A DNA stretch of 34,638 bases, from the NCBI GenBank assembly GCA_031281125.1, contig JAITFU010000144.1:1-34638 (forward strand), read 5' to 3'. The position numbers were made by a program, and so were the translations under genes. This DNA comes from Prevotellaceae bacterium (lineage in GTDB: Bacteria; Bacteroidota; Bacteroidia; Bacteroidales; UBA932). The notes under the pieces are model-generated. The model was not told the origin of the DNA, made no database searches, and saw only the letters and a list, made by a program, of their open reading frames with translations. This document shows positions 1,070 through 31,859 of this stretch, piece by piece. Numbering within the stretch: position 1 is the stretch's first letter; every line of letters starts with the position of its first letter.

Positions 1070-1762
1070 CTATCGATATTTTGAATCTAACATCACCTTA
1101 AACTCCTTACTTCCAGCTAACTCCGCACCATCTAAACCACTCTTGGGGCTATATTTTCCCGCAGGCAGGTCTTTAAATGTATAGGCATTGCAAGCTCTTG
1201 CCACATCAACATATTTAGTAGCAGCTGTGTTGATTGCAGATGCAGTCAAATCAATCACCACACCCAATAACCCCTTAGTTCCGGTCGAAACAGAAGCATT
1301 ATACGTAACATCTCCTATTCTAGAATAGACAACCTCGCCCGTTTTGATCGATTTAATGATGTATTCTACTTGTACGTACACTTTTGCCGCAATTCCGGAC
1401 TTGTCCCACTTGTTGATAACCGTAAACACTGCCAAATCGGCCCCAAACACCTCTCCAAACTTTGTTAAGGAGGAGTTTAAAAACAATTCAGAGTCGTAGG
1501 CGCTCTCCCTTTTTAAGATTTCCATGGAGAGGAAGGGTGGAATTACGTAATAACCGGCATCATTGATGGGTATATTTAATGTCGAATGAAAATACTCTTT
1601 TGCCTCCACATTGGTACTTCTGTTGATGGGCGGCATAAGTAGAATGGTCAATGGTTTTTCTTCGTATAGACCTTTGTAGGCAACTGATTTGGATATCTGG
1701 GTTGTTCCGCAGCTTGATAAAAAGAGCGCGGCAACGATCGTAAAAAATAAAAACTTTTTCAT
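1070..1762 (-). CDS. DUF799 / GNA1162-family lipoprotein
   Basis: This 230-residue protein has a classic lipoprotein signal, with a hydrophobic stretch then FLSSC and the lipidated Cys at position 18. The mature part resembles the DUF799 (GNA1162-like) family: a segment ILLMPPINRS near residues 40-50, then GYYVIPP and an FGADLAVFTVI strand, similar to the nucleotide-binding-like fold of CsgG/TolB N-terminal domains. It is the last gene of a four-gene minus-strand operon, and its ATG overlaps the stop of the DUF4810 gene in an ATGA. As I recall the family, DUF799, DUF4810 and CsgG-like genes recur together in Gram-negative bacteria. A role in an outer-membrane assembly is inferred only, and the biochemical function is unknown. 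Confidence 0.85.
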   Translation of the reverse strand: MKKFLFFTIVAALFLSSCGTTQISKSVAYKGLYEEKPLTILLMPPINRSTNVEAKEYFHSTLNIPINDAGYYVIPPFLSMEILKRESAYDSELFLNSSLTKFGEVFGADLAVFTVINKWDKSGIAAKVYVQVEYIIKSIKTGEVVYSRIGDVTYNASVSTGTKGLLGVVIDLTASAINTAATKYVDVARACNAYTFKDLPAGKYSPKSGLDGAELAGSKEFKVMLDSKYR

Positions 1763-2103
1763 TCTTCAATCATTTTTAAGATTCTACTTACAAAGGGCGC
1801 AGATTCAGGATACAAGTCGATCTCTTTTAAAAGCATCGCTTTAGCCTCTTTGGTTTTGCCCTCTTGAAGCAAAATAAATCCATAATCGGCAAATATTCCC
1901 GGAGGCGCAACCATACGCGATCCTCTTTGTTTTTCGATGATTTGGTTAAACGTAGCAATTAACTCTTTGGTTGCCTTTTCATCGCTGTTTTTTAGATAGT
2001 TATAGCTTGTTATTTCATACTGTCCCCATGTGTAAAGGGGTTTTGTGGTGACGCACGAAACAAGTAATAGTGCGTCTACGGTGAAAATAATTAGTCTTTT
2101 CAT
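1759..2103 (-). CDS. DUF4810 lipoprotein
   Basis: This is a 114-residue lipoprotein with lipobox LLVSC and Cys17. The mature sequence (PLYTWGQYEITSYNYLK, a Glu-rich helix, then PPGIFADYGFILLQEGKTKEAKAMLLKEIDLYPES) matches the DUF4810 family. Its second half looks like one TPR-type helical hairpin, which suggests protein-protein contact. The start overlaps the previous gene's stop by four bases (ATGA), and its own stop overlaps the DUF799 start the same way, so translation is probably coupled and the products made together. An Asp at position 10 inside the hydrophobic signal segment is unusual. Function is unknown; context points to an accessory of the CsgG-like protein. Confidence 0.85.
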   Translation of the reverse strand: MKRLIIFTVDALLLVSCVTTKPLYTWGQYEITSYNYLKNSDEKATKELIATFNQIIEKQRGSRMVAPPGIFADYGFILLQEGKTKEAKAMLLKEIDLYPESAPFVSRILKMIEE

Positions 2104-2426
2104 GGCAGATTGATTTTTTTTGTCTCTTGAATCGATATAAAGATTTGACTCTTATATACTTCTCGATCGCGGTAAAAAACGGTAACGATATGTGTTCCGG
2201 TAGGTATCGCATACACTTTGCTCTTGGTATTTGATTGTTTGTTTACCGTTGCTTTAAAAGCAATCTGATTATCAAGAACTACGTCCACTCCTCCCGAATA
2301 GTTGCTTGGATTTCCAATAATTTCCAAAAAGGCATCGTTTTCTATACCTGAAGAGGTTGACCTTGTGGTTCCACAACTACTCAAAAAGAGTACTCCAATG
2401 GCGATGGCAAAAAATAGTCTTTTCAT
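2100..2426 (-). CDS. Small PEGA-like lipoprotein of the CsgG operon
   Basis: This is a 108-residue lipoprotein with lipobox FLSSC and Cys18, followed by GTTRSTSS. The mature domain, from VDVVLDNQ through the turn PTGTHIVTVFYRD to a final beta strand, has the pattern of a PEGA-type beta sandwich. That assignment rests on pattern and not on a clear family match. Its start touches the csgG-like stop (TAATG) and its stop overlaps the DUF4810 start (ATGA), so it is an integral member of the operon. The signal peptide is very like that of the DUF799 protein (both contain LFLSSCGTT), consistent with the same sorting route. It is the least recognisable member of the module. Confidence 0.8.
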   Translation of the reverse strand: MKRLFFAIAIGVLFLSSCGTTRSTSSGIENDAFLEIIGNPSNYSGGVDVVLDNQIAFKATVNKQSNTKSKVYAIPTGTHIVTVFYRDREVYKSQIFISIQETKKINLP

Positions 2427-7931: not shown

Positions 7932-9617
7932 TTAAGGTTTGGGCACAATATACGGTTTTTTAAACTCAATATTTGGCAAACGGGTAATGTCCATCTCTTC
8001 AAATAGTATGGCATTAGGAGAGATAACAGAAGACTGGTTAAATCCGTAACTCTCTATTTGCTCTATGTTGGAAGCACCTAAGATTCGTTTAAAAGGTCTA
8101 AGGCTTGTTGCGTCTGAAATGGCTGCCCCACGCACCAACTCTTCACGTCCATCTTCTACATACACTTTATAAAAAAAGCTATCTCCTCCGCTCATTATCC
8201 TAACGATATATGCGTATTCCAAATCCTCCTCCTTGGCTGCCGCGATCAGTTTTTTATACAATTCATCGTTACTAAAAGTTTGATTACAGGTAATGTGGAT
8301 GTTACCTGCGGTTACCTTATAAGCATTGGCGTTATAATCAAAACGTACATGGCCGTTTGATTCTCGGATATTGTTGGTTGGTTTTCTGCCGTTCAACAAG
8401 TTACGCAGCACACCGTTTTCAATCAGCATCAACTCTTTTGCAGGAACAACACCTTCTGCATCAATCGGATAATATCCGTTGAGTCGTTTTCCATTGTAAA
8501 ATTCCTGTCCGGTAATCGACTTAATTGAAAGATCCCTCGAAATCACTTTCTTGTTTAGCATCAATTCAAAATCATTTCCTCCTAATTGTGGAGACGTTAA
8601 TTGCAATACTCCATTTACCATTATCAAACTTTGGGATTGAGGCAGTTGAGCTAATTTTGGAGCTGCTGCCAACTTGTTATTGCTGAGAAAAGCCTGCACA
8701 AAGAGAATATATAACGCCTTTCCTTCAAACAAAACCGGTCCGCTGTACGCATCGTTCACCACATGCGCATTCTTTAGCTTTAAAAGATTCTCCATAACCG
8801 CTTTACATTGATTTGTAAAGGTAACAAGGTCGGGCATTTGTTCAAACGTAGCGTTCTCTTCATAAACTGTTTGGCTAAGGTCTTGCCCGTCTTCTGCCCG
8901 TGTGTTTGCGGTAAATGTAAGTTGATAAAAAGTATAGGGGATTGTGTAACGGCTACCCTCTGTGTTATAAGTATATGTCATGATACTTCTTGCAGTCAGC
9001 GATACGTTTGAGTTCAAAATATCGGGATATTGTTTGGCCGTTTCCGAAACCTTTCGTAAATAGTTTTCCCAGTACGCCTTGTTAAAATTAAGAGAAACCG
9101 GTTGAGCGATCATGTGTACTTGTTTTACCTGTTCAAAGTCCGGCAGGTCTTTTTCCTCCTGAGTTTGAGTTTGTTGCTGCAGGATCGCCATTTTGGATCG
9201 ATACGTTTCTACGGAACTTTTGTAAACCCCATCCAAGTCTCTCCAAATGGTAATCGGTACACCGGTTGTGTTGTCAATTAGAGTTGTTGACGAAGGTGAA
9301 AAAGCTCTTTCGGGCACTTTTAGGTTATTGCGGTGATAATTTCCAACCAACAATGTGGGCATTCCGCGTCTTTGATGAATTTCGCTTGTACTGCTTATGG
9401 TGCCCAACGAGGCAGACAGGGTGTAATCAACCCTGTCAAATACCGAATAACTGATGAAAAACGGGGGCGCCATACCCTCCATTTTGAGTGATGTCATGTT
9501 TCTGTCCACCTCTTTTTGAATGGCATTAATAACGGGGTTATCGCTTTGCGCCGCTAGTGGGTACAGTCCAAGGAATAGACCAAAAAATAACAAAGTAATT
9601 TTTATTGTTTTGCTCAT
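7932..9617 (-). CDS. Secreted TldE/PmbA-like protein (no zinc motif)
   Basis: This 561-residue member of the TldD/PmbA family starts with a signal peptide (LLFFGLFLGLYPLAAQS), so it is probably periplasmic. It aligns by eye with the neighbouring TldD-like protein along its length: the shared N-terminal motif FFISYSV, the central KAYWENYLRKVSETA segment, and TFTANTRAEDGQDL. At the equivalent position it reads LFVQAFLSNNK instead of HEIFGH, so it cannot hold the catalytic zinc. That is the pattern of TldE (PmbA), the non-catalytic partner in the TldD-TldE protease heterodimer. It is 26 bases downstream of the TldD-like gene and is surely co-transcribed. Cytosolic TldD/E in E. coli processes microcin B17 and degrades unfolded peptides; the substrate of a secreted pair is unknown. 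Confidence 0.85.
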   Translation of the reverse strand: MSKTIKITLLFFGLFLGLYPLAAQSDNPVINAIQKEVDRNMTSLKMEGMAPPFFISYSVFDRVDYTLSASLGTISSTSEIHQRRGMPTLLVGNYHRNNLKVPERAFSPSSTTLIDNTTGVPITIWRDLDGVYKSSVETYRSKMAILQQQTQTQEEKDLPDFEQVKQVHMIAQPVSLNFNKAYWENYLRKVSETAKQYPDILNSNVSLTARSIMTYTYNTEGSRYTIPYTFYQLTFTANTRAEDGQDLSQTVYEENATFEQMPDLVTFTNQCKAVMENLLKLKNAHVVNDAYSGPVLFEGKALYILFVQAFLSNNKLAAAPKLAQLPQSQSLIMVNGVLQLTSPQLGGNDFELMLNKKVISRDLSIKSITGQEFYNGKRLNGYYPIDAEGVVPAKELMLIENGVLRNLLNGRKPTNNIRESNGHVRFDYNANAYKVTAGNIHITCNQTFSNDELYKKLIAAAKEEDLEYAYIVRIMSGGDSFFYKVYVEDGREELVRGAAISDATSLRPFKRILGASNIEQIESYGFNQSSVISPNAILFEEMDITRLPNIEFKKPYIVPKP

Positions 9618-9643
9618 GATAAGTTGTTTTTAGATTAATAAAG

Positions 9644-11320
9644 TTACGGTCTTTTAAGAATTGGAGGCTGACTTTGCGACCTGGCTTTCTTTTGCGTTTC
9701 GATCATTTTTACAAACAATGTGGGGGCCACACAAGCAGTAGGCACGCTGCCCGATTCGGCGCCGCAATAGCCGTTAAAAATATCGTAATCGTTACCGCAG
9801 GCAGCAATTTGCGAAAAGATGGCCAAAGGCGTACCTACCAAATCAACGCCGCGTACGATTTCATCGGGGCTGCCGTCTGCATAGATGCGGTAAACTAAGT
9901 AGGGAGAGACGTTAAACGCATTAGGCATATAACGGCCGGTGGTAGTAAATCCGCCAGATACCTGATCCATCAAGTAGCCATACTCTTTCCCTTCTGCCTT
10001 TAACTGCTCCAACATCATGGTACGTAGTTCTTTATTCGATCTGGGCTGATTGCTTTCTATAATGAGGTTTGATTGGCGGGTAAAGGTGTTCAACTGAATC
10101 ATGCCGCGTCCGTGACCGTTTGATCCGGGAAAACCTTCGATGGGAGAGCGACTCATCAAAAAAGAGGTGAGTATCCCATTTTTCACAATTTCGACACGTT
10201 GTCCCCGAACGCCCTCGTCGTCAAACACATATTGGCCGCTGAGGGAAAAACCGTACCCTTTTTTTAATTGTGGTTCAAAAATCACAGACATATCTTCGGG
10301 TAACACCAATTCGCCCAATTTTTTCTTAAATGTCTGGGCATCAGCTTCACTCTTAAGACGGGCTCCTTCAATTCGGTGTCCAAAAATTTCGTGAAAAAAG
10401 ACGCTGGCTGCCTGTCCGGTCATCAGCATCGGACCGGAATACGATTCGGCAACAGGAGCGATCCGCAATTTTGAGATCGTTTCACTCATCCATTTGACAT
10501 CGTTAATGACCTGTTCGTCGGAGGGAAAGTCTTTGAGGTCGTATGCAAAATAGCTTTTATACAAGGGAAGATCCATGCCATCGTCCGCTTTGGCAGCAGC
10601 AGACATGGACAAACGATAGGTAAGACGGTTTTCAAAAATTTCGGCACCTTCGGTATCAACAAAATACTTGTGAGTCAATTCAATCTCAAAAGAGAAAGAG
10701 GAGTTGATAATGTCTTTGTTCTCATTGAACACGGCGCTGTATTTCTTTAGTTTTTCTTCCCAAGTTTTGGGGTCAAATTTAGCTTCGGAAAAGGCGATCG
10801 GTTTTTCTGAGTATTTTTCAGGTGTTTCTAAGCTAAAATCAGGCGATTGATCATCGGAACTCACCTTTACGGCTACATTGGCTTTCACCTTTTCAAAACG
10901 TTTGGTTGCCTCTACATACATGGCGTCTGTTTTTTGCCACAACGTTGTTCTCCATGCAGCCGGGTTGCTTTCTAACCCAAGCGTACCGAATCCCGATGAG
11001 TTGTAATTGGCATATCCGGATTCGTTAGACTCTTTGATTTCGCGGGTATTGTCCATGGTGGGAGTACCTACCCTAACGCCCACGTTAAAGTAACGTTGGG
11101 TGCTTGGCCTGCTCAGTAAAATGTTGCCAAAATTTGCGGTAATGCTGTAAGCGTTTATGTCATACACCCTGTAACTGATGTAGTATGCCGGAATCGGCTG
11201 CTTTTTTAGTTCGGCAAGGTTGCGATCTGCTTCGCTTTTGAGCGTTTGCAACAGCAAACTTTGCGCCGTCATCTGTTGAAGAGAGAGGGCGAATAAAAAT
11301 AAAACAATGGTTTTCTTCAT
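9644..11320 (-). CDS. Secreted TldD-like metalloprotease (zinc HExxxH)
   Basis: This is the catalytic partner of the pair, 558 residues from ATG 11320. The zinc motif HEIFGH, extended as HEIFGHRIEGARLKSE, lies near residue 310. The C-terminal active-site region GYCGAESGSVPTACVAPTL resembles the TldD end with its conserved Cys. I reject the longer ORF start (11368): the residues MKKTIVLFLFALSLQQMTAQ from 11320 form a clean signal peptide, and a TATCTTTG -7 box lies at 11346-11353, just downstream of the longer start. The signal peptide places the enzyme outside the cytoplasm, unlike E. coli TldD. It forms an operon with the TldE-like gene and possibly asmA, and is divergent from the Fic-derived gene. 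Confidence 0.9.
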   Translation of the reverse strand: MKKTIVLFLFALSLQQMTAQSLLLQTLKSEADRNLAELKKQPIPAYYISYRVYDINAYSITANFGNILLSRPSTQRYFNVGVRVGTPTMDNTREIKESNESGYANYNSSGFGTLGLESNPAAWRTTLWQKTDAMYVEATKRFEKVKANVAVKVSSDDQSPDFSLETPEKYSEKPIAFSEAKFDPKTWEEKLKKYSAVFNENKDIINSSFSFEIELTHKYFVDTEGAEIFENRLTYRLSMSAAAKADDGMDLPLYKSYFAYDLKDFPSDEQVINDVKWMSETISKLRIAPVAESYSGPMLMTGQAASVFFHEIFGHRIEGARLKSEADAQTFKKKLGELVLPEDMSVIFEPQLKKGYGFSLSGQYVFDDEGVRGQRVEIVKNGILTSFLMSRSPIEGFPGSNGHGRGMIQLNTFTRQSNLIIESNQPRSNKELRTMMLEQLKAEGKEYGYLMDQVSGGFTTTGRYMPNAFNVSPYLVYRIYADGSPDEIVRGVDLVGTPLAIFSQIAACGNDYDIFNGYCGAESGSVPTACVAPTLFVKMIETQKKARSQSQPPILKRP

Positions 11321-11369: not shown

Positions 11370-11403
11370 TTTGCATAAGCGATCAGATAAATATGTAACT
11401 TTG
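11370..11403 (+). promoter_or_regulatory. Promoter TTTG-N22-TAACTTTG for the Fic-derived gene
   Basis: A -33-like TTTG at 11370-11373 and a -7 box TAACTTTG at 11396-11403 lie upstream of ATG 11429, with 25 bases between box and start. The spacer is slightly longer than the usual 19-21. The intact promoter suggests the shortened gene is still transcribed, and it may also serve the GH20 gene. Confidence 0.55.
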
Positions 11404-11428: not shown

Positions 11429-12013
11429 ATGAGCACTATTGAGAGATTATATAAGGAATGGCGCGCTTTGCAGCCCCTCCAGCCGGAGTTGCAACGCAGG
11501 ATGGATCAGCAATTTATGTTTGACTTCAACTACAATTCCAATAGAAAAAACTATTTGGACGTATTGGGCAGGTGTGATAACATTATTGGTTTCATGCCAT
11601 TTGACGGAGCAAATGCTTCAAAGGAACAAATCGAACCACTTCTTGAGTATATCGCCAACTTGGTGGAGAAGAAACTTTCCCTTGTTATTTCTTATGCGAA
11701 AGGAGAAATTATGCAATTTTCTGAAAGCGGTGTCGTAGAAAAAAAAGTTGATAGTCAGATTGATGTTTCTAAGGACATTATTACTGTCGTAGAAGATGTC
11801 GTAGAGAATACTGTCGAAAACATAACTAAGAAGAGGAAAAAGATAATTGTCCAATTTATCAAGATGAACAAAAATATATCAGCAAATGAAATTGCAAAAT
11901 TACTAAAGGTAAATTTAAGAACAGTACAGCGTGATATGCAACTACTTAAGAATGATGGTGTCATAGAGCGCATAGGCGGCGACCGAGGAGGTTACTGGAA
12001 AATAGTCAAATAA
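11429..12013 (+). CDS. Fic-family protein lacking the whole Fic catalytic core, winged-helix C-terminus kept
   Basis: The 194-residue product is two ends of a Fic protein joined in frame. Residues 1-40 (ERLYKEWRALQPLQPELQRR, then FMFDFNYNSNR) match the N-terminus of bacterial Fic proteins, which normally continues NSN-x-x-EGNT through the inhibitory helix. Instead, after NSNR the sequence jumps to KNYLDVLGRCDNIIGF and DGANASKEQIEPLLEYI, a segment normally found after the HPFxxGNGRxxR active site. The rest is intact: a linker, then a winged helix-turn-helix (ISANEIAKLLKVNLRTVQRD, DGVIERIGGDRGGYWKI). So roughly 150-200 residues, including the AMPylation site, are missing without a frameshift. 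ATG 11429 is preferred to the upstream TTG at 11411 because it fits the family start and the promoter. It could be a decaying gene or a surviving DNA-binding protein. GH20 follows 19 bases later. Confidence 0.82.
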   Translation: MSTIERLYKEWRALQPLQPELQRRMDQQFMFDFNYNSNRKNYLDVLGRCDNIIGFMPFDGANASKEQIEPLLEYIANLVEKKLSLVISYAKGEIMQFSESGVVEKKVDSQIDVSKDIITVVEDVVENTVENITKKRKKIIVQFIKMNKNISANEIAKLLKVNLRTVQRDMQLLKNDGVIERIGGDRGGYWKIVK

Positions 12014-12032: not shown

Positions 12033-13685
12033 ATGAAAAAACTATCTGTCACCCTGCTTGCATCGCTCTCAACTTTATGGTGCCTTGCACAAGTATCAAT
12101 TATTCCGGAACCCCTAAAATTAACACAAGGATCCGGTACATTTTCTCTTCACGATCAAGTCCAATTGGTGGCCGTTTCTGCCGATGAGTTACAGTCGGCA
12201 CGCTATTTTTCCGACTATCTAAAAAAGCATTACAATCTTAGCATCCAAATCGTTGAGAAAGTCGGAACAGATCCGGCAATTCTATTCTCTGTGGTGGAAA
12301 AGGAAACTCCATCGGTGACAGGAGAGTACGAATTAACGATTGATACTAAGCTGATTGTGCTCAATGGATTCAATCCCCAAGGCCTTTTTTACGCCGTACA
12401 AAGCCTTATTCAGCTTATACCGGCAAAGGGCCATTGGAAACTCGAAATTCCGGCGATATATATATATGATAAACCGGCATTTTCCTATCGTGGGATGCAC
12501 TTTGACGTGGTGCGCCATATCTTTCCGGTTGAGTATATTAAAAAGTTTATTGACTATTTGGCGCTGCACAAGATGAACTACTTTCATTGGCACCTTACCG
12601 ACGACCAAGGGTGGCGTATCGAGAGCGCTAAGTACCCAAAACTCAACACCATTGGTGCGTACAGAGAGGCCACGATCATCGGAATGTTTCCGGGCACCGG
12701 GGTTGATAGTACCCGTTACGGCGGTTTTTACACCGTTAAAGAGCTTCGCGAAGTGGTTGATTATGCCAAAGCACGTTACATTACCGTGATTCCCGAAGCC
12801 GACATTCCGGCGCACTGTATGGCAGCGATATCTGCCTATCCTCAACTGAGTACCGCTCCCGACACCTTGCGGAGGCCAGCTTCCACTTGGGGCATTTTTA
12901 ACCGTCAAAATAATGTACTCTCTCCCAACAAATACACTTTCAAATTTTTGGAAGATATTTTTGACGAATTGTGCGATATTTTCCACGACTCGCCCTACAT
13001 CCACTTTGGCGCAGACGAAGCATCGACAATGTGGTGGAAAGAATCAGCGGAATCTCAAGAATTTATGAAGCAAAACAACATGACGGACGAGGGTGAAATT
13101 CAGGACTACTTGGTGCGGTTGGTGGTAAATACCATCAATAACAAGGGAAAAATAGCGGTCGGGTGGGATGAGATCACCCGCGACCCCAAACTTAGCGGAG
13201 ACGTGGTAGTGATGAACTGGCGGGGCCAAAGGGGAGGTAATGAGGCGGCAAATAAGGGTTATAAGGTGATCATGACACCGTCTCGCTACAGTTACCTAAA
13301 CTCATCGCAAAGACCTGACGAAGAGTTGGTTCTTCCCCGCAGGGTAACCACACTTGACACCGTTTATCTCTTTAATCCTGTTCCAAAAGCGCTCTCTCCC
13401 CAAGCAGCCGAAAATATCATTGGAGGTCAGGGGTGTATGTGGACAGAGTACTATCCCACCATTTCTAAAGTAGAGTATGCCCTTTTTCCGCGTCTATCTG
13501 CCATTGCAGAAAATTACTGGAGCGGGCAGGGCCGCAAAGATTTAACCAAGTTTAAACAAAAGCTAAGTAAACAGTTTGACCTCTACGATCTGTGGGGTGC
13601 CAACTATTGCAACTACGTGGTGGATATAGGGGACGTTAAGAGACTCCTTAGTACCCCAAATTATCTCCCTTCAAAATCTTATTAA
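12033..13685 (+). CDS. Secreted beta-N-acetylhexosaminidase (GH20)
   Basis: This 550-residue exo-hydrolase removes terminal beta-linked GlcNAc or GalNAc from glycans. A signal peptide (MKKLSVTLLASLSTLWCLAQ) is followed by the GH20b N-terminal domain (about 22-150) and the TIM-barrel catalytic domain from FSYRGMHFDVVRHIFP. Conserved features include HKMNYFHWHLTDDQGWRIE and the catalytic Asp-Glu pair D328-E329 in HFGADEA, where family members usually read HxGGDE. There is no C-terminal carbohydrate-binding domain. The gene follows the Fic-derived gene by 19 bases with no TAnnTTTG between, so it is likely read from the 11396 promoter. Its last 38 bases overlap the convergent esterase gene. Likely use: host or cell-wall amino-sugar scavenging. 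Confidence 0.95.
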   Translation: MKKLSVTLLASLSTLWCLAQVSIIPEPLKLTQGSGTFSLHDQVQLVAVSADELQSARYFSDYLKKHYNLSIQIVEKVGTDPAILFSVVEKETPSVTGEYELTIDTKLIVLNGFNPQGLFYAVQSLIQLIPAKGHWKLEIPAIYIYDKPAFSYRGMHFDVVRHIFPVEYIKKFIDYLALHKMNYFHWHLTDDQGWRIESAKYPKLNTIGAYREATIIGMFPGTGVDSTRYGGFYTVKELREVVDYAKARYITVIPEADIPAHCMAAISAYPQLSTAPDTLRRPASTWGIFNRQNNVLSPNKYTFKFLEDIFDELCDIFHDSPYIHFGADEASTMWWKESAESQEFMKQNNMTDEGEIQDYLVRLVVNTINNKGKIAVGWDEITRDPKLSGDVVVMNWRGQRGGNEAANKGYKVIMTPSRYSYLNSSQRPDEELVLPRRVTTLDTVYLFNPVPKALSPQAAENIIGGQGCMWTEYYPTISKVEYALFPRLSAIAENYWSGQGRKDLTKFKQKLSKQFDLYDLWGANYCNYVVDIGDVKRLLSTPNYLPSKSY

Positions 13686-28767: not shown

Positions 28768-29439
28768 TCAAACCCTCCAATCAATCGGCGCCAATCCTTG
28801 CCGTTGCAACAGTGCATTGGTCTGAGAGAAGTGACGATTGCCAAAGAAGGCACCGCGGGAGAGGGGAGAGGGGTGCGCGGCTTCGAGTACAAAATGTTTG
28901 GATGTGTCGATCAGGTTTCGTTTGGTGCGGGCAAAGTTGCCCCACAATAGAAAGATGAGGCCGGAGCGATGTTGCGATAGCGTTTGGATCACGGCGTCTG
29001 TAAAGGTTTGCCATCCGATTTGGCTGTGCGAGGTGGGCGCTCCGGCGCGCACGGTGAGTACAGCGTTGAGCAGGAATACGCCTTGTAATGCCCAAGACTC
29101 CAAGTTGGCGTGGTCGGGGATGGGAATGCCTAAGTCGGTGTTTAACTCTTTAAAAATATTTTGAACCGATGGAGGGGGGGGTATTCCTTTAGGTACAGAA
29201 AAGCAAAGTCCATGCGCCTGTCCGGGCCCATGGTAGGGGTCTTGGCCTAAAATCACCACCTTGGTTTTGTCAAAGGGTGTCAGGTCAAAAGCGTTAAAGA
29301 TCAGTTTGCCGGGAGGGTAAACGGTTATCCCCGATGTGATCTCTTGACGTACGGTTTGGGAGAGTTGTTCAAAATACTCCTTTTCAAATTCAAGTGCCAA
29401 GACGCTTTTCCATCCAACCTCTAAACGCACATCCATCAT
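28768..29439 (-). CDS. ung: Uracil-DNA glycosylase
   Basis: Ung removes uracil from DNA in base-excision repair. This 223-residue protein is full length. The family A signature VVILGQDPYHGPGQAHGLCFSVP contains the catalytic Asp in GQDPYH. The uracil-specificity region is IFLLWGNFARTKRNLI, and the DNA-intercalation loop reads AAHPSPLSRG with the catalytic-loop His. Its start overlaps the lon stop (ATGA, 29436-29439), so it is translationally coupled to the downstream part of lon. If lon translation ends early at the internal TGA, coupling to ung might be weakened; this is inference. The second Met (29436) is an alternative start. Confidence 0.96.
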   Translation of the reverse strand: MMDVRLEVGWKSVLALEFEKEYFEQLSQTVRQEITSGITVYPPGKLIFNAFDLTPFDKTKVVILGQDPYHGPGQAHGLCFSVPKGIPPPPSVQNIFKELNTDLGIPIPDHANLESWALQGVFLLNAVLTVRAGAPTSHSQIGWQTFTDAVIQTLSQHRSGLIFLLWGNFARTKRNLIDTSKHFVLEAAHPSPLSRGAFFGNRHFSQTNALLQRQGLAPIDWRV

Positions 29440-29960
29440 TTGGTATTTAATACATACGATAATACCTGATCAATACTCCTGACATAAGTAAAGTGAAGCC
29501 CCTTTATGTATTCAGATTTAATATCCTCAACATCTCGCTGATTATCAATGGATAAGATGATATTTTTAATGCCGGCACGTTTGGCTGCCAAAATTTTTTC
29601 TTTAATTCCGCCCACCGGAAGTACCTTTCCGCGAAGCGTCATCTCACCCGTCATGGCCACCTTTTTACGCAAAGGTCTCTTCATAAACGAGGAGGCCATT
29701 GCGCAAACGATGGTGATCCCTGCGGAGGGGCCATCTTTTGGAATCGCCCCTTCCGGTACATGAATATGGACATTCCATTCAGCCATTTTTTTTGCATCTT
29801 GCTTAATAATGTGGGCATTAGCTTTAAGATATTGAAGGGCAATGATGGCCGACTCTTTCATCACCTCTCCTAAGTTTCCGGTGGTGGTGAGTTCCCCCTT
29901 TCCTTCGCTTAGGCTCGACTCCACAAAGAGCACCTCTCCACCGTTTTCGGTCCATGCCAA
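29436..29960 (-). CDS. Lon protease-domain part (174 aa, from TTG)
   Basis: This frame begins with the TTG (Leu codon) that directly follows the internal TGA and carries a complete Lon P domain. It has [14 protein letters not shown], the catalytic Ser in [29 protein letters not shown] with the catalytic Lys, and a normal C-terminus. If ribosomes reinitiated at the adjoining TTG, a free protease domain would result, without its ATPase ring. No separate promoter was seen for it. It ends in an ATGA overlap with ung. Confidence 0.7.
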
Positions 29961-31859
29961 TCACGTTGCCACACCCGGAATAGGGTTGCTGTCCACCATA
30001 TCGGGGTGGTGCAGGGGCAGTCCAAGTATTTTTCGAATATCTTCCGATGTGGGTTCGACCCGATACTTCTCCTTTGAAGCAATCTTTTTGGCTATGGTTC
30101 GCGATATCTTTGCCAACTGTTTATCAAGTAAACGCACACCCGATTCGCGTGTGTAGTCGTCAATAATAAGCCTAATATTCTCTTCTGATAAAATGAGCTG
30201 ATCGGTTTTGAGCCCATGGGCTTCCAACTGCTTGGGCAGCAGGTAGTCTTTGGCAATACGCTGCTTCTCTTCAGCCAAATACCCGCTAAGCGGAATCAAC
30301 TCCATACGGTCACGTAATGCAGAATGTATAGTGCTTATATTGTTGGCAGTAGTTATAAAGAGCACCTTAGAAAGATCGTAATCGAGGTCTAAGTAGTTGT
30401 CGTGAAAACTGACATTTTGTTCCGGATCCAACACTTCGAGTAGGGCCGATGCAGGATCTCCGTGGTGGTCGGTCCCCACTTTGTCAATTTCGTCCAATAT
30501 TATCAGAGGATTAGAAGATTTGCATTTTTTGATGGTTTGAATAATTCGACCCGGCATGGCTCCGATATAGGTGCGGCGATGGCCTCGGATCTCTGCCTCG
30601 TCGTGCAACCCACCCAAAGAGATACGGCCAAAACTCCGACCCATTGCACGTGCAACCGACCTTCCCAAAGAGGTTTTCCCCACCCCGGGAGGCCCGTAGA
30701 GGCAAAGAATCGGCGACTTCATATTGCCTTTAAGCTTGATCACCGCAATATATTCGAGTATCCGCTCTTTGATCTGCTCCAATCCATAGTGGTCCTCATT
30801 CAAAATCTTTTTTACGTGCCTTAAATTGAGCTTATCTTTGGTTGTTTCGTTCCAAGGCAGATCAACCAAATATTGAAGATAGTTTAACTGAATACCCCAA
30901 TCGGGTGAGTGAGGGTGAGAACGTTCCAACTTTTGCAACTCCTTTTCAAAGGCAGTTGCCACTTCCTGAGGCCACGCTTTTTCCGCTGCCCGTTTGCGCA
31001 AAACACCCACCTCTTTGTCAGAGCTGTTCATTCCCAATTCGTCCTGAATCGTTTTGAGCTGATTGTTTAGATAATACTCACGCTGTTGCTGGTCAATATC
31101 TTTACGTACTTTCTGACGAATATCGTCCTTGATTTTTAGAAACTCAATCTGATTGTTAAGTAATTCTAATAATTTGACTCCCCGTTTTTTAAGACTACTC
31201 TCTTCCAATAAGACAAGTTTGTCTGTCGCATTTTCTACATCGATATTAGAAGCAATAAAGTTGATCAAAAACTCTATGCTGTCGATATTCTTTATGGCAA
31301 AACTTGCCTCCTGAGGCATGTGTGGCGAAAGTTTAATGATTTGAAGAGCAGCGTCTTTTATAGCGCCGATCATTGCCGAGAAGTTTGGGTCTGTCGATTT
31401 GACATCAACATCTTTCAGATACCGTACCTTTGCCCTCAAATAGGGATGCTCAGTCACCATTTCGACCAATTCTATCCGGTTGTATCCATGCAAGATGGCG
31501 GTGATTCCACCATCCGGCATCTCAATCACTTTTAAGATCCGCGCCAAACAGCCAAATTTGCACAACTGATCCGGTTTTGGATCGTCAATATTTTGATCAA
31601 TTTGAGTTACAGCTCCCAGCAGTTTTGTTCCCTCTGCGGCGTCTCTGATCAATTTTATCGATTTGTCTCTGCCTACGGTAATAGGAATCAAGGTGTGGGG
31701 AAAGAGTATGGCGTTGCGCAGGGTGAGTATGGGCAAATCGGTGGGCAACTCCACGTCGTTGATGTCGGAGCGGTCCTCCAAATTTAGGACGGGCAAAATA
31801 TCAATCTCTTCTGTAAGAGCAGTTTGTGTAAAAAAATCGTCTATGTCTTTCATGGTCAT
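29961..31859 (-). CDS. Lon N-terminal and ATPase part (632 aa)
   Basis: This ORF holds the Lon N-terminal LAN domain (LPILTLRNAILFPHTLIPITVGR, about residues 42-245) and the coiled-coil region (QQREYYLNNQLKTIQDELG). The AAA+ module follows, with Walker A GPPGVGKTS near 387 and Walker B LIILDEIDK near 455. It stops at GVAT, just before the protease domain, so the product could bind and perhaps unfold substrates but not cleave them. The start is MTMKDIDD, with a second in-frame Met at codon 3. I found no perfect TAnnTTTG box in the 96-base gap upstream. Confidence 0.8.
   Translation of the reverse strand: MTMKDIDDFFTQTALTEEIDILPVLNLEDRSDINDVELPTDLPILTLRNAILFPHTLIPITVGRDKSIKLIRDAAEGTKLLGAVTQIDQNIDDPKPDQLCKFGCLARILKVIEMPDGGITAILHGYNRIELVEMVTEHPYLRAKVRYLKDVDVKSTDPNFSAMIGAIKDAALQIIKLSPHMPQEASFAIKNIDSIEFLINFIASNIDVENATDKLVLLEESSLKKRGVKLLELLNNQIEFLKIKDDIRQKVRKDIDQQQREYYLNNQLKTIQDELGMNSSDKEVGVLRKRAAEKAWPQEVATAFEKELQKLERSHPHSPDWGIQLNYLQYLVDLPWNETTKDKLNLRHVKKILNEDHYGLEQIKERILEYIAVIKLKGNMKSPILCLYGPPGVGKTSLGRSVARAMGRSFGRISLGGLHDEAEIRGHRRTYIGAMPGRIIQTIKKCKSSNPLIILDEIDKVGTDHHGDPASALLEVLDPEQNVSFHDNYLDLDYDLSKVLFITTANNISTIHSALRDRMELIPLSGYLAEEKQRIAKDYLLPKQLEAHGLKTDQLILSEENIRLIIDDYTRESGVRLLDKQLAKISRTIAKKIASKEKYRVEPTSEDIRKILGLPLHHPDMVDSNPIPGVAT

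What the first reader, a model, noticed from the sequence alone, without database searches (positions are those of the whole stretch)
11429..12013. Fic gene with a precise in-frame loss of its catalytic core, leaving promoter and winged helix
The N-terminal Fic segment ends at NYNSNR, inside the (S/T)xxxE(G/N) inhibitory helix (normally continuing EGNT). It is joined in frame to KNYLDVLGRCDN, which normally follows the active site. HPFxxGNGRxxR is absent. Everything outside the gap is intact, including the HTH and a consensus-like promoter, and GH20 follows 19 bases later. This could be a toxin or AMPylator turned into a bare DNA-binding regulator, or a relic on the way out. Family assignment of the two ends is from remembered Fic sequences; the regulator role is inference.
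Basis: partly seen in the sequence, partly recalled or inferred. Interest (0 to 1): 0.62.

Follow-up and report, generated by a model that had tools for sequence, protein, structure and literature searches.

The report
Fic gene missing its catalytic core
In a Bacteroidales draft genome, a gene for a protein-modifying (Fic) enzyme has lost exactly 181 codons in frame, including its whole active site; both ends survive unchanged, so it is a dead enzyme, most likely a fairly fresh relic and only possibly a leftover DNA-binding regulator.

Summary
Window 11429-12013 (+) encodes 194 aa that align end to end with full-length Fic-winged-helix proteins, except for one gap of exactly 181 codons (543 bp), the same against all five relatives measured. 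The gap starts inside the SxxxE inhibitory helix and ends just after the catalytic region, so HPFEDGNGR is gone. The closest intact relatives, L061 and L064, form a 99%-supported clade with it. All 21 strongly conserved positions outside the gap are kept, and no rate excess is detectable. No second coreless form appeared in about 790 genomes of the family and order, and the own genome holds no intact paralogue of this subfamily.

The promoter is probably not the Fic gene's own: in a same-genus genome the same tldD-to-GH20 slot has a similar TAnnTTTG promoter but a GH92 gene. The upstream inverted repeat is mainly two divergent promoter boxes. Only the winged helix is confidently modelled. Best reading: a real, probably recent loss-of-function allele of a horizontally acquired Fic gene, passively kept as leader cistron of GH20. 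Retained DNA binding is possible but unshown. Reads were not available, so an assembly error or minority allele is not fully excluded.

The parts
11429..12013 (+). Coreless Fic ORF, 194 aa plus stop
11429..11542 (+). Fic N-terminal segment, residues 1-38, ending inside the inhibitory helix (NYNSN)
   Evidence: alignment with intact relatives
11542..11543 (+). Deletion junction; 181 codons (543 bp) missing relative to intact relatives
11543..11728 (+). Post-core Fic segment, residues 39-100
11729..11806 (+). Linker, residues 101-126, of the L061/L064 type; low model confidence
11807..12010 (+). Winged-helix domain, residues 127-194
   Evidence: HTH_11 over cut-off; pLDDT mostly 77-89
11396..11403 (+). 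TAACTTTG, match to the Bacteroidales -7 consensus TAnnTTTG; probably the promoter of the slot and of GH20
   Evidence: sequence; similar box before GH92 in L070; consensus in PMC7366714
11370..11373 (+). TTTG, possible -33 element, 22 bases before the -7 box
   Evidence: sequence; weak
12033..13685 (+). GH20 beta-hexosaminidase gene, starting 19 bases downstream
   Evidence: Pfam 347 bits
9644..11320 (-). Divergent TldD/PmbA-like gene (start taken at 11320)

Best explanation
A real in-frame internal deletion of 543 bp in a horizontally acquired class II Fic-winged-helix gene. The product cannot AMPylate, because the FIC motif and most of the fold are gone (shown by sequence), and should not act as an inhibitory-helix antitoxin, because the SxxxE motif is cut (shown). 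The remaining ORF is most likely a fairly young loss-of-function relic. It is still open because it is recent, and perhaps because an in-frame leader cistron avoids polarity on GH20, with which it probably shares a promoter (inferred). The winged helix probably still folds and may still bind DNA (inferred).
For: Exact 181-codon gap and collinear ends of one subfamily. GC3 along the ORF (0.63, 0.39, 0.33) mirrors the same parts of intact L061 (0.68, 0.40, 0.34), so one gene with a gap, not a chimera. 21 of 21 strongly conserved positions kept; six Tajima tests p 0.10-0.83. Clade with L061 and L064 (99%), apart from the same-genus G002 Fic gene. The slot holds GH92 in G002; no GH92 detected in the own genome. 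No second coreless form in family and order samples. Short winged-helix ORFs without a full enzyme part occur in related genomes.
Against: No frameshift or stop has accumulated and conserved positions are intact, which a selected product would also show. The age of the deletion cannot be measured, because the nearest relatives are only about 50-60% identical. Co-transcription with GH20 is not shown.
Confidence: 0.58

Rival explanations
1. The coreless protein is a retained DNA-binding regulator: the winged helix binds DNA, perhaps near its own promoter, and affects GH20 and/or tldD.
For: Intact winged helix; no violated conserved position and no rate excess; open frame; precedent in CccR, whose C-terminal domain represses its own promoter (PMC9755527), and in DNA binding by CbFic2 (PMC10628234).
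Against: No recognisable dedicated operator: the upstream inverted repeat is mainly two divergent -7 boxes. No relative shares the junction. The Fic leftovers are modelled with low confidence. The intact state of the ends is equally expected from a recent deletion.
Confidence: 0.22
2. Assembly error, or a minority deletion allele in a mixed population: the organism mainly carries an intact Fic gene here.
For: Draft genome in 200 contigs with estimated contamination 2.24%; no reads available; lon in the same window carries an in-frame stop that could be a consensus error.
Against: Relatives share only about 2 nt at the break points, while false joins normally need longer repeats (general knowledge). 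No intact paralogue of the subfamily in the assembly. The loss is exactly in frame.
Confidence: 0.12
3. The remnant still acts through its Fic parts, for example by pairing with other Fic proteins of the cell through its N-terminal helices and blocking them.
For: The genome has other Fic proteins; heterologous Fic-Fic interaction and neutralisation is known in Campylobacter fetus (PMC5651007); CccR dimerises through its first helix (PMC9755527).
Against: The inhibitory glutamate is missing; the other Fic proteins of the genome are distant in sequence.
Confidence: 0.05

Closest known systems
BT_2513 of Bacteroides thetaiotaomicron (PDB 3cuc), class II Fic
   Same: Closest solved relative of the subfamily (E 3.4e-112 to L061); the window protein matches it in two stretches
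   Different: Has the complete Fic core and motif; the window protein lacks 181 codons of it
CccR of Yersinia pseudotuberculosis (PMC9755527)
   Same: Fic part plus C-terminal HTH; DNA binding by the C-terminal domain represses its own promoter
   Different: Keeps its catalytic core and toxicity; here no operator is shown
SoFic (PDB 3eqx) and CbFic2 (PDB 8cil)
   Same: Class II Fic proteins with C-terminal winged helix; found by fold search with the intact relative L061
   Different: Full enzymes, distant in sequence
HATPase_c_4 proteins with the same type of winged-helix tail (L097, L098)
   Same: Similar C-terminal winged-helix tail ending in a GYWKI-like motif
   Different: Different enzyme part; shows that the winged helix is a shared module

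Membership tests
Fic/Fido AMP transferase (PF02661) | FIC motif HPFx[D/E]GNGR | tested here: not met
   Absent from the ORF; PF02661 not reported at E<=1. Intact relatives carry it
Class II Fic | N-terminal [S/T]xxxE[G/N] inhibitory helix | tested here: not met
   S37 is followed by NRKNY; the motif is cut after SN
Descent from the BT_2513-like Fic-winged-helix subfamily | Both ends homologous to one subfamily and collinear | tested here: met
   Alignment and tree, 99% clade with L061 and L064
Winged-helix DNA-binding protein | Intact winged-helix domain | tested here: met
   HTH_11 over cut-off; confident model with two-strand wing
Winged-helix transcription regulator | Binds an operator and alters transcription | not testable with these tools
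   Only the promoter region was inspected; the inverted repeat there matches two divergent -7 boxes
Pseudogene or relic | Relaxed constraint after the deletion | tested here: inconclusive
   No rate excess and no violated conserved position; relatives too distant to date the deletion

The most novel reading that the evidence does not exclude
A Fic AMP transferase turned in one step, by in-frame loss of its core, into a bare winged-helix regulator next to a beta-hexosaminidase gene.
Probability: 0.18. Interest if true: 0.5.

Novelty: new variant of a known kind. Interest (0 to 1): 0.27.

Why it matters
If the protein is retained, it would be a clean one-step example of an enzyme gene becoming a transcription regulator, with intact relatives at hand for comparison. 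If it is a relic, as seems more likely, it is a well-resolved case of Fic gene decay after horizontal transfer, and a reminder that an open frame after an in-frame deletion does not prove function.

Tried and rejected
Chimera of two different Fic genes: rejected, because the falling GC3 profile, the linker and the winged-helix type match single intact genes (L061, L064). Collapse with a paralogue of the same genome: rejected, since its other Fic proteins are distant. Operator in the promoter: the 12-nt inverted repeat 11344-11355/11394-11405 is mainly two divergent -7 boxes, and a similar pair lies upstream of intact L061. Phage origin: a viral contig scan found no relative. dN/dS: not attempted, because relatives at 50-60% amino-acid identity are too distant for a reliable dS. 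A literature search for degenerate Fic pseudogenes found nothing.

Full report
Observation. The ORF at 11429-12013 (+) encodes 194 aa. Its first 38 residues and its residues 39-100 align to the two sides of the catalytic region of full-length Fic proteins, the closest of them about 360-380 aa long. In five relatives checked at the DNA level the two points are exactly 181 codons apart, so the window gene lacks 543 bp in frame. The missing part runs from just after S37-N38 of the inhibitory helix to just before RKNYL and contains HPFEDGNGR. Pfam reports no Fic domain in the window protein but a clear HTH_11; the intact relative L061 has both. The closest solved relative is BT_2513, 3cuc (discussed in PMC2686095).

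One gene with a gap, not a chimera. Third-position GC falls along the window ORF (0.63, 0.39, 0.33), and it falls in the same way in intact L061 (0.68, core 0.52, then 0.40 and 0.34) and L062. The linker and winged helix are of the L061/L064 type. A tree of 39 sequences on shared columns groups the window protein with L061 and L064 at 99% support, apart from the Fic gene of the same-genus genome G002. That suggests horizontal acquisition (inference).

State of what remains. At all 21 positions where at least 85% of 28 intact homologues agree, the window protein has the consensus residue. Its terminal branch (0.31) is close to those of L061 (0.23) and L064 (0.25), and six relative-rate tests give p from 0.10 to 0.83. 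So there is no sign of decay beyond the deletion itself. That fits a recent deletion as well as retained function; the relatives are too distant to tell. AlphaFold is confident only for the winged helix (block means 77-89), while the Fic leftovers have block means of 46-73. The alignment held only five sequences, and the intact control L061 was itself modelled only moderately well (mean pLDDT 63), so the low values are weak evidence. The nearest solved structures to the window model are mostly winged-helix DNA-binding proteins, none below E 0.001.

Locus. Upstream and divergent lies a TldD/PmbA-like gene; 19 bases downstream lies GH20. In the same-genus genome G002 the order is tldD, GH92, GH20, so a GH92 gene sits in the Fic position. 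Its -7 box is preceded by the same letters as in the window (TAAATATGTATATTTG against TAAATATGTAACTTTG). The own genome has no detectable GH92 (draft, about 90% complete). The simplest reading is that the promoter belongs to the slot and to GH20, not to the Fic gene (inference; the shared stretch is short). The upstream inverted repeat that might look like an operator is mainly two divergent TAnnTTTG boxes (consensus in PMC7366714).

Rarity. Searches of 399 genomes of the family and 393 of the order found many intact relatives, but none with a match running through the whole coreless query as in the window. A pattern-based scan of GTDB genome contigs gave four relatives, all intact, and viral contigs none. 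Short ORFs with the same type of winged helix and no full enzyme part do occur in related genomes, as fragments of HATPase_c_4 proteins or of uncertain origin. Loss of the enzyme part around this tail is therefore not unusual.

Function. The protein cannot AMPylate. Lacking the inhibitory glutamate (role described in PMC3667792), it should not inhibit other Fic proteins in that way. A DNA-binding role has precedents in CccR (PMC9755527) and CbFic2 (PMC10628234), but nothing here shows it. I commit to a probably recent loss-of-function relic carried as leader cistron of GH20 (0.58), with a retained regulator as the main rival (0.22) and an assembly or minority-allele artefact at 0.12. The artefact is disfavoured because intact relatives share only about 2 nt at the break points and no intact paralogue of the subfamily is in the assembly, but reads were not available.

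Noticed in passing
window 29436-31859 (-): The lon protease gene is interrupted by a single in-frame TGA between its ATPase part (29961-31859) and its protease part (29436-29861), the frame otherwise staying open: real disruption, polymorphism or consensus error.
   Followed up: partly
L070 (G002:C29) 505-2832: In a same-genus genome a GH92 glycosidase gene occupies the slot that holds the Fic remnant in the window; the window's genome has no detectable GH92.
   Followed up: partly
L099 about 1578-2108 (+): A 177-aa ORF in G027 appears to join an unrelated N-terminus, a weak HATPase_c_4-like piece and the same winged-helix tail: possibly another internally deleted gene that keeps its winged helix.
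   Followed up: partly
L051: The Fic N-terminal match in G102 lies in a short frame with an in-frame TAG, a possible decayed Fic gene in the same family.
   Followed up: no
window 7932-11320 (-): Two tandem TldD/PmbA-like proteins with signal-peptide-like N-termini; neighbouring pairs of such genes also occur in G002, G014 and G022.
   Followed up: no
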